Source: JAMORN01 sp027063545 [NCBI: bacterium]
GTDB taxonomy: Bacteria > JAMORN01
Direction of reading: 5' to 3'
DNA length: 11,733 bases
NCBI GenBank assembly: GCA_027063545.1
Contig: JAMORN010000040.1
Location: 1-11,733, forward strand
The notes beneath the pieces are model-generated. The model searched no databases. It saw only the letters and a program-made list of their open reading frames with translations, and was not told where the DNA came from. Shown in pieces: positions 3,534 to 7,067 of this stretch. Position numbers and translations under genes: made by a program. Position 1 is the stretch's first letter. Each line of letters opens with the position of its first letter.

Positions 3534-4519
3534 AAAGGATTCATATTACTATAGGAGATCCAGGTGGTATAGGTGTTGAAACTTTAATTTTAGGGATAAA
3601 TAAGTTGTTAAATACTGACTCAGAGTTTTTTTCTAAGTTTATCACATTAATTTATACACCATTTTCAGTTATTGAAAGATATAAAGATAAAATAAGTTTT
3701 GATTATAATATTATTGAAGATATAGATAAAGCTCAAAGTGGTATAAATATATTTAATATAAAAGAGTTAAATAAAATAGACTACCAAATAGGGACTATAG
3801 ATAAAAATAATGGTTATATAGCAGCAAAAAGTATAGAAGAGGCATTAAAATACATAAAGCCCAAGGAGGTACTAATAACTTTACCCATAAATAAAGAAAG
3901 TATAAATCTTGCTGGGTATAAGTTTAATGGACATACAGAATTCTTAGCTTTTTTAACAAATACAGAAGAAGTTTTTATGAGTTTTTGGGGTAAAATAAAT
4001 ACTTTGCTATTAACAACACATATATCAATGGAAGACATGATTAAAAAAATTAGAGATAAAGATTATGTCTATACAAAGATAAAAAATAGCTCTAAATTAA
4101 TTGAGGAAGTATATGGAAGAAAAATAAAATTTGGACTTTGCGGTTTAAATCCCCATGCGGGTGAAAATGGTCTTATGGGAAAGGAAGAAGTTGAAGTTTT
4201 ATCTCCAGTTGTTGAAAGGTTAAGAAAAGATGGGATAGATATATCTTATCCTCAACCTTCAGATACAATATTTTATAGATATTTAAATGGAGAATTTGAT
4301 TTTATATATAGCCTTTACCATGATCAAGCTTTAAGTGTGATAAAAACATTTTTTTTAAATAAAAGTGTAAATTTTACTTTAGGATTACCATTTTATAGAA
4401 TATCTCCAGATCATGGAACAGCTTTTGATATAGCAGGAATGTTTATTGCTAATTATGAACCTTTTATATATACTTTAAAATTTGGAATAAAGTTATATGA
4501 AAGAAATTTTAGAATTTAG
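3530..4519 (+). CDS. pdxA: 4-hydroxythreonine-4-phosphate dehydrogenase
   Basis: PdxA oxidises 4-phosphohydroxy-L-threonine with NAD to the amino ketone that PdxJ condenses with deoxyxylulose 5-phosphate, in the DXP-dependent vitamin B6 pathway in the cytoplasm. The 329-residue length is typical. The N-terminal ITIGDPGGIGVE matches the family signature ITMGDPAGIGPE. Gly134-His135-Thr136 (GHTEFLA) is the substrate site. The three metal-binding histidines are present: His164 (LTTHISM), His209 (NPHAGENG) and His264 (YHDQA), almost the same numbers as in E. coli. The SPDHGTAFDIAG motif lies near residues 292-303. Its ATG overlaps the surA stop (ATGA), and surA-pdxA adjacency is also seen in E. 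coli. No other B6 gene is in the window. The PdxA family includes dehydrogenases acting on other 4-phosphorylated acids, so the substrate is inferred. Confidence 0.93.
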   Translation: MKRIHITIGDPGGIGVETLILGINKLLNTDSEFFSKFITLIYTPFSVIERYKDKISFDYNIIEDIDKAQSGINIFNIKELNKIDYQIGTIDKNNGYIAAKSIEEALKYIKPKEVLITLPINKESINLAGYKFNGHTEFLAFLTNTEEVFMSFWGKINTLLLTTHISMEDMIKKIRDKDYVYTKIKNSSKLIEEVYGRKIKFGLCGLNPHAGENGLMGKEEVEVLSPVVERLRKDGIDISYPQPSDTIFYRYLNGEFDFIYSLYHDQALSVIKTFFLNKSVNFTLGLPFYRISPDHGTAFDIAGMFIANYEPFIYTLKFGIKLYERNFRI

Positions 4520-5120
4520 AGATTTTAATATAAAGATAAAGGATAGTTTTATTTTTCCTAATGATTTAAATATTAAATTATTAGAAAATGATTTTTCTGT
4601 TGTAGAAACAGATTATAAAGATGAAATTTTAAATGTTCTATTAGGTAAATTTTATGACTATAAAGGAGATATAATATTCCTAGAAACATCTATAAAAAAT
4701 TTACCACAAAAATTTATCCATAAACGAATAAGTTATATTTCTAGTTATAATTCATTTTTATCTGAAATGAGTGTTTTTGAAAATATAGAGCTTTCTGTTT
4801 ATTTTAAGAACAGAGACTATATAAAAAATTTATTTGATTATTTAAAAGAAAATAATCAAATAAATTTCCTTTTATATAAAAAGGTTAAAGATTTAACAGA
4901 TTTTGAATATGAAAGGTTAATGATAATAAGAGCAATTTCAAGACTTCCCCATCTTTTAATTGTAGATGAGATTTTATACTCAGAAAATATAGATTTCTTT
5001 TTTAAGAATTTAAGTTTTTTTAAAGAGTTTAATACCTTTACAATTTTATGGCTTGTAAGAAAAGATAAAAAGAAAATTTTAAAGAAATATTGCAATGAAG
5101 AAAATTATATTAGTTTTTAA
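4497..5120 (+). CDS. FtsE-like ABC subunit with degenerate ATP-binding motifs (predicted pseudo-ATPase)
   Basis: FtsE normally binds and hydrolyses ATP on the inner face of the membrane to drive FtsX, which activates cell-wall amidases through EnvC. This 207-residue protein aligns by eye with FtsE over its full length: the N-terminal strands (LEFRDFNIKI), the G50 helix end, KGDIIFLETSIKNLP, RISYISS, SVFENIELS, then ERLMIIRAI and the Walker B LLIVDE (153-158). The nucleotide motifs are mostly lost. The P-loop GxxGxGKST position reads ETDYKDE (37-43), with at most Lys41 kept and acidic residues in place of Ser/Thr. The Q-loop Gln is Ser83, LSGGE is LTDFE (133-137), the D-loop after Glu158 is ILYSEN, and the H-loop His is Arg188. 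The frame is intact. It overlaps pdxA by 23 bases and ftsX by 26 bases, so its identity rests partly on the ftsX neighbour. ATP hydrolysis is very unlikely; ATP binding is doubtful. Confidence 0.8.
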   Translation: MKEILEFRDFNIKIKDSFIFPNDLNIKLLENDFSVVETDYKDEILNVLLGKFYDYKGDIIFLETSIKNLPQKFIHKRISYISSYNSFLSEMSVFENIELSVYFKNRDYIKNLFDYLKENNQINFLLYKKVKDLTDFEYERLMIIRAISRLPHLLIVDEILYSENIDFFFKNLSFFKEFNTFTILWLVRKDKKKILKKYCNEENYISF

Positions 5121-5916
5121 ATTATCTTTTTATTTATTAAAAAGGGATTTTTTTAAAAGTTTTTATATTATTCTAATGTTTCTATTTCTTCTTATAGTTT
5201 TTGATTTAATATATATAACTAACTCTTATAAGATAAACTATATTGATTTTATTTTAAATAATACCTCTATAGAAGTTTTTTTTGATCCTTTAGTTGATTC
5301 TAATTACATAAAAGAATTTATTGATTCATTAACAAATAAATATAAATTAGAACAAATAGAAATAGTTACAAAACAAGACGCATTTTCATATTTAAAATCT
5401 AAGTTTAAAGATTTAAAGGTAGTGAGTATAGATATTTTACCAATGTCCGTTGTATTGATAATAAATAAAGATTTTAATTATAATAGGTTAAATAAATTAT
5501 TACATTACTTAAAGTCAAGGAAAAATGTTATTCATATTTCGTATAATAAAGGACTTCTGTTATTTTTGAAAAAGTTTGATAAATATTATCATTATTTTTT
5601 TATATCTTTTATTTCACTTTTATCTATAATTGGAATATTTTTTATATATAACAATATTTATCATTATACAGGTGATAGAGATGAATTCTTAGAAACTTTC
5701 AATGAACTAGGTTATAGTAAATACTATATTAAACTATCTTATTTTATAAATTTTTTAATATTATCATTAATATCTAATTTAATTATAGCATTTTTTATGT
5801 ATAAATATTATTATTTACTAAATAATATTATAAACAAGGATCTATGGTGGATTTTAAAAACAAATATTTATATAACATTAGGATTTTTATTATTTATCTT
5901 ATTTTTTCATCTATAA
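5095..5916 (+). CDS. ftsX: Cell division protein FtsX (permease-like subunit)
   Basis: FtsX is the membrane partner of FtsE at the division site; its periplasmic loop binds EnvC-type activators of peptidoglycan hydrolases. The 273-residue protein has the family layout: a short cytoplasmic N-terminus, TM1 (about 24-43), an extracytoplasmic domain (44-160), TM2 (166-188), a cytoplasmic loop (189-213), TM3 (214-240) and TM4 (256-273). The extracytoplasmic domain shows the FtsX pattern of IEVFFDP, KQDAFSYLKSKF and DILPMSVVLI (about 59-123). The loop RDEFLETFNELGYSKYYI corresponds to the REIEIMKLVGA coupling segment that docks on FtsE. It is slightly shorter than the usual ~300 residues and ends right after TM4. 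There is no clear Shine-Dalgarno; translation is probably coupled to the upstream frame. Its last 73 bases also encode the start of the EnvC-like protein. Confidence 0.88.
   Translation: MKKIILVFKLSFYLLKRDFFKSFYIILMFLFLLIVFDLIYITNSYKINYIDFILNNTSIEVFFDPLVDSNYIKEFIDSLTNKYKLEQIEIVTKQDAFSYLKSKFKDLKVVSIDILPMSVVLIINKDFNYNRLNKLLHYLKSRKNVIHISYNKGLLLFLKKFDKYYHYFFISFISLLSIIGIFFIYNNIYHYTGDRDEFLETFNELGYSKYYIKLSYFINFLILSLISNLIIAFFMYKYYYLLNNIINKDLWWILKTNIYITLGFLLFILFFHL
5836..5840 (+). promoter_or_regulatory. Possible ribosome binding site of the envC-like gene
   Basis: AAGGA lies inside ftsX only three bases before ATG 5844. The spacing is short, but it is the best purine-rich site near the only ATG that yields a signal peptide. 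Confidence 0.35.
5844..5916 (+). other. 73-base dual-coding overlap of ftsX and envC
   Basis: The final 24 codons of ftsX (TM4 plus stop) and the first 24 codons of the EnvC-like protein (basic leader and most of the signal peptide core) are read from the same bases in two frames. Both frames encode a hydrophobic helix, as the T-rich sequence allows. Confidence 0.8.
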
Positions 5917-7067
5917 TAAATTTTTCAGTTTTTATCAGTTTAAGTGCTAAGAATTATGATAGACTTTTAAAGAAAAAAAATACCGAAATTCAAAAAATTG
6001 AGAAACGATTAAATAAATTACAGAAGAAAAGAGACAAATTAATAAAAACAGAAAGGGATATTTTAAATAAGATAAAAAGATTAGATGAAGAGATAGATTT
6101 ATACATTGAATTAATAAATAAATTAGAGGAAAAAAATGAACTTTTAATATCTCAGATAGATTCTTTAAAAGAAAGTTATCAGTCCAAAGAGATTGAATAT
6201 ACCGATTATGTTAGAGAACTAAATAAACTTCTTCTTTATCTATATTTTTATTCAAAAGACAAAGATAGATTGAATTTTTATTCTGTTTTTGATACTACTT
6301 ATTATCGGGAAATAGATAGATTTTTTATTTATTATAACTATTTATATAAAATATTAAAAGATATTGTGGAGACAACTCATAAAGAAAAACAGCAATTAAT
6401 AGAAAAAGAAATTATTTTAGCTCAGAAATATAAACAATTGGAAGAAACTAAACTAGAGTACTTACAAAAAAGACAAGAGTTAAAGTTATTAAGAGAAAAA
6501 CGTAATCAAGAAGTAAAGAAGATTAAAAATAAAAGATTAAAATTAGAGCTTCAATTGAAAGAATTGCAGAGGGAAAAAAAAGAAATAGAAAACATAATAA
6601 CTATTTTAATAAAGCAAAAAGAAAAGCAAAAGAAACTCAAATCTAAAGTTAAAACATATTCTGTAAAACTATTAAAAGGTAAAAGATTTTTTTATCCTAT
6701 ATATAAGCCCAAGATTGTTAGAAGATTTGGGAGATATTATGATAAAAAGTATAAAGTTAAAATATTAAATAAAGGTATAGATATAACTTCTAAACTTACA
6801 AAAAGTTATAAAGTATTTGCAGCTCGTAAAGGAAAAATTGTAAAAATTGGATATTTTAAGAATTTAAAAAATTATATTATAATAGAACATGAAGATGGAA
6901 TTTATACATTTTACTCTGGATTAGATAAAATTTTAGTAAAAGAGAATATGAAAGTAACAATAAAAACACCTATTGGTATAATGAAAACAAAAGGTATTTT
7001 ACATTTTGAATTAAGAGTTGGAAGAAAGGCAATAGATCCCATTAGATATTTAAAGCATAGAGGATAG
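5844..7067 (+). CDS. envC: EnvC-like murein hydrolase activator (signal peptide, coiled coils, degenerate LytM/M23 domain)
   Basis: EnvC is recruited by the FtsX periplasmic loop and switches on N-acetylmuramoyl-L-alanine amidases during septum splitting. The 407-residue product begins with a basic stretch and hydrophobic segment (about 12-35, probable cleavage after Ala35). A long Lys/Glu-rich coiled coil (about 40-125) follows, then a helical middle (140-190), a second coiled coil (about 190-275) and a LytM domain (282-403). The LytM zinc site is mostly lost: the usual first His is Asn309 though Asp313 is kept (NKGID), the YxHL His is Gly359 (YSGL), and the HxH reads Ile385-Leu-His387. This pattern marks a non-enzymatic activator, as is normal for EnvC. 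The protein should be periplasmic. It directly follows ftsX, the expected partner; the amidase is not in the window. NlpD-like or PcsB-like proteins are alternatives, but the context favours EnvC. Confidence 0.88.
   Translation: MVDFKNKYLYNIRIFIIYLIFSSIINFSVFISLSAKNYDRLLKKKNTEIQKIEKRLNKLQKKRDKLIKTERDILNKIKRLDEEIDLYIELINKLEEKNELLISQIDSLKESYQSKEIEYTDYVRELNKLLLYLYFYSKDKDRLNFYSVFDTTYYREIDRFFIYYNYLYKILKDIVETTHKEKQQLIEKEIILAQKYKQLEETKLEYLQKRQELKLLREKRNQEVKKIKNKRLKLELQLKELQREKKEIENIITILIKQKEKQKKLKSKVKTYSVKLLKGKRFFYPIYKPKIVRRFGRYYDKKYKVKILNKGIDITSKLTKSYKVFAARKGKIVKIGYFKNLKNYIIIEHEDGIYTFYSGLDKILVKENMKVTIKTPIGIMKTKGILHFELRVGRKAIDPIRYLKHRG
7060..7064 (+). promoter_or_regulatory. Ribosome binding site of holB
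   Basis: GAGGA within the last codons of the envC-like gene lies five bases before ATG 7070 and supports that start. Confidence 0.6.

What the first reader, a model, noticed from the sequence alone, without database searches (positions are those of the whole stretch)
4497..5120. FtsE homologue that has lost nearly all ATPase motifs
Aligned by eye to E. coli FtsE, the P-loop GxxGxGKST is ETDYKDE (37-43), the Q-loop Gln is Ser83, the LSGGE signature is LTDFE (133-137), the D-loop is gone and the H-loop His is Arg188. Walker B (LLIVDE, 153-158) and the overall order of secondary-structure landmarks are preserved in an uninterrupted frame between pdxA and ftsX. FtsE ATP binding and hydrolysis are known to drive FtsX-EnvC amidase activation, so a maintained pseudo-ATPase would mean a different way of working: a scaffold, an FtsZ/FtsA linker, or a constitutive conformation.
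Basis: partly seen in the sequence, partly recalled or inferred. Interest (0 to 1): 0.8.

Follow-up and report, generated by a model that had tools for sequence, protein, structure and literature searches.

The report
Cell-division ATPase turned non-catalytic partner
In one deep-branching bacterium the protein that normally burns ATP to trigger daughter-cell separation (FtsE) has lost almost all its ATP-handling parts while its membrane partner still carries the piece that plugs into it, which suggests that this division switch can be rebuilt to run without ATP.

Summary
ORF 4497-5120 is an open 207-codon gene in the place of ftsE: another deep lineage (G101) has ftsE-ftsX-envC-holB-ricT-metG in the same order, with a normal P-loop. 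The window protein models as an ABC domain (pLDDT 83.8, alignment-guided) and keeps Walker B, but has lost the P-loop glycines (loop three residues shorter), A-loop Tyr, Q-loop Gln, the SGG of the signature and the H-loop His. One correction: K41 is in register with the Walker A lysine.
FtsX keeps a full-length coupling helix with its glycine; four other FtsX, all without ftsE beside them, have lost it, though 12 further FtsX-like proteins without an adjacent ftsE keep the glycine. An EnvC-like gene follows; ftsZ and an Amidase_3 protein are present; no second FtsE was found in the 83%-complete genome.
Elsewhere, divergent FtsX often sit beside partly eroded FtsE (GK[ST] kept, signature and H-loop lost), conserved through most of one phylum. 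Of 77 adjacent FtsE compared, only the window's lacks GK[ST].
Best reading: FtsE became a nucleotide-independent docking subunit for FtsX-EnvC. Gene decay is the main rival, because no relative within the phylum is held to test selection.

The parts
4497..5120 (+). ftsE-derived pseudo-ATPase gene, 207 aa
   Evidence: open frame; ABC_tran E 8.5e-10; position in the ftsE-ftsX-envC-holB-ricT-metG order shared with G101; AF2 model pLDDT 83.8, FtsE structures 9iue, 8tzj and 6z4w at Z 20.1
4605..4625 (+). P-loop remnant ETDYKDE (residues 37-43): all glycines lost, loop 3 residues short, K41 in register with the Walker A Lys
4743..4745 (+). Q-loop position, Gln replaced by Ser83
4746..4793 (+). post-Q segment YNSFLSEMSVFENIEL (84-99), placed by me near the FtsX-docking groove; 5 of 16 identical to consensus, mean log-odds +0.54, but 1 of 4 near-invariant columns kept
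   Evidence: position in the groove inferred, not shown
4893..4907 (+). ABC signature replaced: LTDFE for LSGGE
4953..4970 (+). Walker B LLIVDE retained
5058..5060 (+). H-loop position, His replaced by Arg188 (register; one search puts D190 there)
   Evidence: no His after residue 152
5095..5916 (+). ftsX, 273 aa, four strongly hydrophobic TM-like segments
   Evidence: TIGR00439 49.4 bits, FtsX_ECD E 5.7e-4; hydropathy
5674..5742 (+). FtsX coupling helix DRDEFLETFNELGYSKYYIKLSY (residues 194-216), full length, glycine kept
5844..7067 (+). envC-like gene: M23/LytM domain in which usual zinc ligands look replaced (NKGID, YSGL, ILHFE)
   Evidence: Peptidase_M23 E 4.8e-17; tblastn to the EnvC-like gene of G101 E 8e-14; residues read, ligand positions recalled

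Best explanation
The gene is ftsE by descent, and its product is a pseudo-ATPase kept as a structural subunit of FtsX. Shown: the gene is open and its product models as an ABC nucleotide-binding domain; of the positions that bind ATP in E. coli FtsE only the lysine is identical; the part of FtsX that inserts into FtsE (the coupling helix) is present at full length; an EnvC-like gene follows. Inferred: two copies dock on the FtsX dimer without nucleotide, stabilise it, and hold FtsX-EnvC in one conformation, so that amidase activation is set by recruitment to the division site or by EnvC itself rather than by an ATP cycle.
For: Of eight ATP-contacting positions named for E. coli FtsE (G40-T43, Q86, S139, G141, H195; PMC11491553 section 7, read) only the lysine is identical. 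The AF2 model, guided by 12 ABC homologues, has pLDDT 83.8 and pTM 0.82; FtsE structures align at Z about 20 and TM 0.74-0.76. FtsX keeps a full coupling helix with its glycine. That glycine is kept in 48 of 48 FtsX beside an FtsE of 150 bits or more, 26 of 28 beside a weaker one, and 12 of 16 with no FtsE in at least 700 bp read upstream; the four without it there (G022 and three species of one genus) have a shortened or replaced helix. 42 of 49 hydrophobic columns kept, P 2.5e-8 against the protein's own composition (overstated, since the alignment favours such matches). Eroded FtsE elsewhere is conserved: five within-genus pairs with GK[ST]-only FtsE give dN/dS 0.021-0.110. E. coli FtsE K41A and E163Q still bind FtsX in a two-hybrid test (PMC7668044, passage read).
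Against: No relative inside the phylum, so selection on this gene itself is untested. The coupling-helix argument is weak: 12 of 16 FtsX-like proteins without an adjacent ftsE keep the glycine too, among them weak FtsX of G179 and G314, so a kept helix need not mean a docked FtsE beside it; their FtsE may lie elsewhere. FtsE residues that bind the helix in E. coli (R78, R79) are H75 and K76 here. ftsE and ftsX are the lowest in GC of the ten genes measured, compatible with relaxed constraint. In E. coli, K41A and E163Q FtsE do not complement (PMC7668044), D162N blocks septation through FtsA and is thought to be ATP-bound (PMC7343993), ATP binding is held to drive the change in EnvC (abstract of PMC12505981), and nucleotide-free FtsEX was unstable in vitro (PMC11491553, passage).
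Confidence: 0.58

Rival explanations
1. A gene in decay: the FtsEX switch is being lost, FtsE has stopped working and the open frame is a passing stage before deletion, as in lineages where ftsX-envC remain without ftsE.
For: ftsX-envC without ftsE upstream is seen in G022, G078, G220 and G350; the window gene scores far below FtsE; low GC of ftsE-ftsX; FtsX itself is strongly diverged; many FtsX without an adjacent ftsE keep the helix glycine.
Against: Open frame of 207 codons where 121 of 1863 single changes give a stop; hydrophobic columns kept at 42 of 49; the window's FtsX keeps the helix that four FtsX without ftsE have lost; coding overlaps with both neighbours.
Confidence: 0.26
2. It still handles nucleotide in an unusual way, through K41 and the Walker B DE, or in a mixed dimer with another ABC ATPase of the cell.
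For: K41 and D157-E158 are kept; the genome holds other ABC ATPases, the best at 180.7 bits to the FtsE model.
Against: No glycine is left in a shortened P-loop; no Gln, His or signature glycines; the best other ATPase lies beside a 419-aa LolC-like permease, and I saw no FtsX-like gene beside any of the eight ATPase loci read, of 15 other matches.
Confidence: 0.09
3. It is not FtsE but another degenerate ABC protein, or an assembly or sequencing artefact.
For: NCBIfam scores FetA (36.4 bits) above FtsE (26.5); tblastn of the window's ftsE and ftsX finds no hit in the syntenic locus L146; the genome is an 83%-complete assembly of 355 contigs.
Against: Gene order ftsE-ftsX-envC-holB-ricT-metG is shared with G101; consensus errors would be expected to break the frame rather than replace motif after motif within a good hydrophobic pattern (inference).
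Confidence: 0.07

Closest known systems
FtsE of FtsEX-EnvC (E. coli, V. cholerae, S. pneumoniae; type VII ABC system)
   Same: gene order with ftsX and an envC-like gene; ABC fold in the model; Walker B; FtsX coupling helix
   Different: no P-loop glycines, Q-loop Gln, signature SGG or H-loop His; shorter P-loop and C-terminus; score far under the family cut-off
   Same: adjacent to a divergent ftsX; signature and H-loop lost; Walker B kept
   Different: they keep GK[ST] of the P-loop; the examples scored (L076, L077, L085, L092, L094, L101, L103, L118) reach 94-142 bits to the FtsE profile built here, against 31 for the window
E. coli FtsE K41A, E163Q and D162N mutants
   Same: nucleotide-handling defect; K41A and E163Q still bind FtsX (PMC7668044)
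   Different: single laboratory changes that harm the cell, not a natural state
Orphan ftsX-envC pairs without an adjacent ftsE (G022; G078, G220, G350; found here)
   Same: divergent FtsX followed by an EnvC-like gene (by reading)
   Different: no ftsE upstream, and FtsX has a shortened or replaced coupling helix without the glycine

Membership tests
FtsE (cell division ATP-binding protein) | curated profile score (TIGR02673, 264.85 bits) | tested here: not met
   26.5 bits, E 4.6e-6
FtsE (cell division ATP-binding protein) | gene directly upstream of ftsX, with an envC-like gene after it | tested here: met
   same order in G101 with a normal FtsE
FtsE (cell division ATP-binding protein) | Walker A GxxGxGK[ST] | tested here: not met
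   ETDYKDE; K41 only. GK[ST] occurs in 76 of 76 other adjacent FtsE-like proteins by text pattern, one more (L099) being cut before its P-loop; non-random sample
FtsE (cell division ATP-binding protein) | Q-loop Gln, LSGGE signature, H-loop His | tested here: not met
   S83, LTDFE; no His after residue 152
FtsE (cell division ATP-binding protein) | Walker B with catalytic Glu | tested here: met
   LLIVDE 153-158
FtsE (cell division ATP-binding protein) | ATP binding and hydrolysis | not testable with these tools
   needs purified protein
ABC ATPase domain superfamily | profile match and fold | tested here: met
   ABC_tran 39.8 bits over its 25-bit cut-off; AF2 model from a 13-row alignment of ABC proteins, best Foldseek E 2.3e-13; the single-sequence model was poor, pLDDT 36
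FtsX (for the neighbour 5095-5916) | FtsX profile match, four TM segments, coupling helix | tested here: inconclusive
   TIGR00439 49.4 bits (cut-off 255), FtsX_ECD 20.9 bits (cut-off 23.5); four strong TM-like segments and the coupling helix present
EnvC-type LytM activator (for the neighbour 5844-7067) | coiled coil plus LytM domain without zinc ligands | tested here: inconclusive
   M23 E 4.8e-17; ligand positions read by eye against recalled M23 motifs; the coiled coil was not computed

The most novel reading that the evidence does not exclude
FtsEX-EnvC exists in nature in an ATP-free form: FtsE has turned from motor into a passive docking subunit, and this is the far end of a repeated path (intact FtsE, then GK[ST]-only FtsE, then motif-less FtsE, then FtsX alone without a normal coupling helix) taken in several bacterial lineages.
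Probability: 0.48. Interest if true: 0.78.

Novelty: new variant of a known kind. Interest (0 to 1): 0.6.

Why it matters
Whether FtsEX needs ATP hydrolysis for amidase activation, or partly works with a docked, non-cycling FtsE, is debated in E. coli (PMC7343993 against PMC7668044; passages read). A natural FtsEX whose FtsE should not handle ATP by any means I know, and a series of eroding FtsE beside it, gives an evolutionary test: what FtsX and EnvC keep when the motor dies shows which contacts matter. It also warns that an annotation 'FtsE' or 'ABC ATP-binding protein' may hide non-ATPases. My searches of open-access full text showed no report of a natural motif-less FtsE (judged from the listings, of which 57, 69 and 72 show only part, and from passages of the papers opened, a broader question on ABC proteins, found none). 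Subscription papers are not covered.

Tried and rejected
Frameshift hiding a P-loop: the other five frames of 4497-5120 hold 11 to 31 stops each and I saw no P-loop in them. A second FtsE in the genome: 16 matches to the FtsE model, the window's own included, none over the cut-off; eight loci were read, one beside a LolC-like permease, the others beside other transporter or unrelated genes, none that I could see beside an FtsX-like gene (gene names from reading); the genome is 82.7% complete, so absence is not proven.

Close relatives: a genome-contig scan with the RicT neighbour found three loci; in the two that I read (L037, L039) I saw no ftsE, the third (L038) I did not read. Relatives and phylum searches showed the window's genome to be alone in its phylum. 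G101 is alone in its phylum too. pdxA of the window had no match in the G101 locus; what lies there between surA and ftsE I did not identify.

Structure: the single-sequence model was useless (pLDDT 36). For the alignment-guided model I tried 120 random subsets of 24 homologues and took one of 12 in which MAFFT put R188 on the H-loop column; with all 24 the C-terminal register differed. So that register is partly my choice, and an alignment of intact ABC proteins pulls the model towards the ABC fold. No FtsE-FtsX complex could be predicted.

dN/dS: 29 within-genus pairs; only the 8 with dS below 1.5 are used. Five are GK[ST]-only FtsE (0.021-0.110), three have an intact P-loop but a changed signature and H-loop (0.118-0.197). 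Several ftsX comparison rows of that call were mis-picked (another gene) and are not used.

Survey: one search was faulty (length and distance limits hid some adjacent FtsE, three repeats), and the groups were set by hand after seeing it; one search replaces both, with one rule. It reads 101 distinct FtsX-like loci, 78 with an adjacent FtsE-like gene. One, L099, is cut before its P-loop and not counted, leaving 77 with the window. L069 is listed there without FtsE by a few bases of my limit, although one search shows an FtsE with a P-loop. The replaced count had said '0 of 4' for weak FtsX without ftsE; the fair figure is 12 of 16 keeping the glycine, so I lowered the best explanation from 0.62 to 0.58 and raised decay. 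The figure '42 of 47' left out the Q- and D-loop columns; the full count is 42 of 49. The sample is not random: the 30 strongest FtsX hits, 39 stretches from the 64 genomes with the weakest hits, one phylum, and likely relatives; most mid-ranking hits among the 278 genomes were not read, and some weak 'FtsX' may be other permeases. The H-loop row was a mis-lookup and is not used.

Full report
What is there. The frame 4497-5120 is open for 207 codons, starts inside the end of pdxA and ends inside the start of ftsX. It has coding character in its own frame (+0.28 bits per codon, against -0.76 and -0.75 in the other two; ftsX +0.22, metG +0.44). Pfam sees an ABC ATPase (39.8 bits); NCBIfam gives weak matches to 14 ABC models, FetA best (36.4 bits), FtsE at 26.5, none near its cut-off. 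Next come ftsX, an envC-like gene, holB, ricT and metG.

Why it is ftsE by descent. One other genome (G101, alone in its own phylum) has surA and, further on, ftsE-ftsX-envC-holB-ricT-metG in the same order; its FtsE has a normal P-loop and scores 298 bits to an FtsE profile I built from 20 sequences. tblastn links surA, envC, holB, ricT and metG of the two loci; ftsE and ftsX of the window are too diverged to match that way. By MetG the nine nearest genomes given as loci are 51-54% identical. In five of those nine I read an ftsE beside ftsX, and all five have a P-loop; two were not fetched, one is cut by a contig edge, one has no ftsE there. So on the evidence held the loss belongs to the window's own lineage.

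What is lost and kept. Against 34 intact FtsE, on hand-anchored segments: glycines of the P-loop, Q-loop Gln, serine and two glycines of the signature and the D-loop are lost, and the A-loop Tyr falls on an isoleucine; no His lies after residue 152. Kept: K41 in the lysine column with the loop three residues shorter, L133 and E137, R140, I143, R145, A146 and P151 after the signature, D157-E158, G57, N96. Hydrophobic columns are kept in 42 of 49 (P 2.5e-8 against the protein's own hydrophobic fraction of 0.473; overstated, as the alignment favours such matches). Of the eight positions named as ATP-binding in E. coli FtsE (PMC11491553, section 7) only the lysine is identical.

Fold. With 12 ABC homologues the AF2 model has pLDDT 83.8 and pTM 0.82; FtsE of S. 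pneumoniae, V. cholerae and others are among the top structural matches (Foldseek TM 0.74-0.76; Z about 20), though not above other ABC domains. Without an alignment the model failed, so the fold result leans on the alignment.

The partner's side. FtsE and FtsX meet through the FtsX coupling helix, which sits in a groove of FtsE (PMC11627006, passages and section 7; PMC11491553, section 7). The window's FtsX keeps a full-length helix, DRDEFLETFNELGYSKYYIKLSY, with the glycine that I take to match E. coli G262 (assignment mine). That glycine is present in 48 of 48 FtsX beside an FtsE of at least 150 bits, 26 of 28 beside a weaker one, and 12 of 16 without an FtsE in at least 700 bp read upstream. 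The four of these 16 without it (G022; G078, G220 and G350, one genus) have a shortened or replaced helix. In this sample loss of the glycine is thus confined to FtsX with an absent or eroded adjacent FtsE, but absence of ftsE beside ftsX does not require it, since FtsE may lie elsewhere. This is suggestive only.

A wider pattern. Searching 386 genomes across the domain with the FtsX model gave 278 with a match; I searched the 64 with the weakest matches again and one phylum of 25 genomes. FtsE beside divergent FtsX often lacks signature and H-loop while keeping GK[ST]. In the G096 phylum an FtsE was read in 21 of 25 genomes: 18 have GK[ST] without the full P-loop (for example LPQSGGKST, LSISE, ATL), three have an intact P-loop; three genomes gave no FtsX match and one is cut by a contig edge. 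G142 and G079 are similar. Within genera these genes are conserved: five GK[ST]-only pairs with dS below 1.5 give dN/dS 0.021-0.110. Of 77 loci with an adjacent FtsE-like gene read past its P-loop, the window's is the only one without GK[ST] (sample not random).

The rest of the pathway. The window's EnvC-like protein has a LytM domain in which residues that bind zinc in active M23 enzymes look replaced (NKGID, YSGL, ILHFE; motif positions recalled); E. coli EnvC also lacks its zinc ligands (PMC11627006, passage read). The genome has ftsZ (399 bits, over the cut-off) and a protein with two partial Amidase_3 matches. So a ring protein and a possible target are present.

How it may work. In E. 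coli, ATP binding and hydrolysis by FtsE are held to move FtsX and EnvC; K41A and E163Q FtsE fail in growth and outer-membrane assays but still bind FtsX (PMC7668044, passages), whereas D162N FtsE still promotes EnvC-dependent cell separation if its block on FtsA is relieved (PMC7343993, passages). The second result shows that a non-cycling FtsE can do part of the job, but that mutant is thought to be ATP-bound, so it does not show that a nucleotide-free one can. I think the window's protein holds FtsX-EnvC in place and in one state, with control moved elsewhere. This last step is inference. The main rival is decay; only relatives in the phylum or bench tests can separate the two.

Noticed in passing
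L076, L092, L094, L101-L119 (phylum of G096; FtsE read in 21 of 25 genomes): Partly eroded FtsE beside ftsX: 18 keep GK[ST] without the full P-loop and have signatures such as LSISE or LSLSE with Q-loop Gln to Glu or Asp; in one family (L107, L113, L115) the P-loop is intact but signature and H-loop are changed.
   Followed up: partly
L086, L088, L127, L130 (G220, G350, G078) and L095, L131 (G022): ftsX-envC pairs with no ftsE upstream and an FtsX whose coupling helix is shortened or replaced; in G022 the upstream neighbour is a transketolase-like gene as in the G096 phylum, so ftsE looks deleted in place.
   Followed up: partly
L080, L087 (G179, G314): Weak FtsX matches without an adjacent ftsE that nevertheless keep the coupling-helix glycine; where their FtsE lies was not looked for.
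   Followed up: no
L144/L145 (G000:C57): A protein with two partial Amidase_3 matches about 280 aa apart in one 658-aa frame, apparently cut by the contig end; the second copy reads DPACGGDD where amidases usually have DPGHGG (recalled).
   Followed up: no
4497-5916: ftsE and ftsX are the lowest in GC of the ten genes measured in the window (18.9% and 16.4%; whole window 25.1%; metG 31.3%).
   Followed up: no
L125, L126 (G072, G343): FtsE-like proteins in frames of 204 codons beside ftsX that lack the H-loop His and much of the region before the Q-loop, beside an FtsX without the coupling-helix glycine.
   Followed up: no
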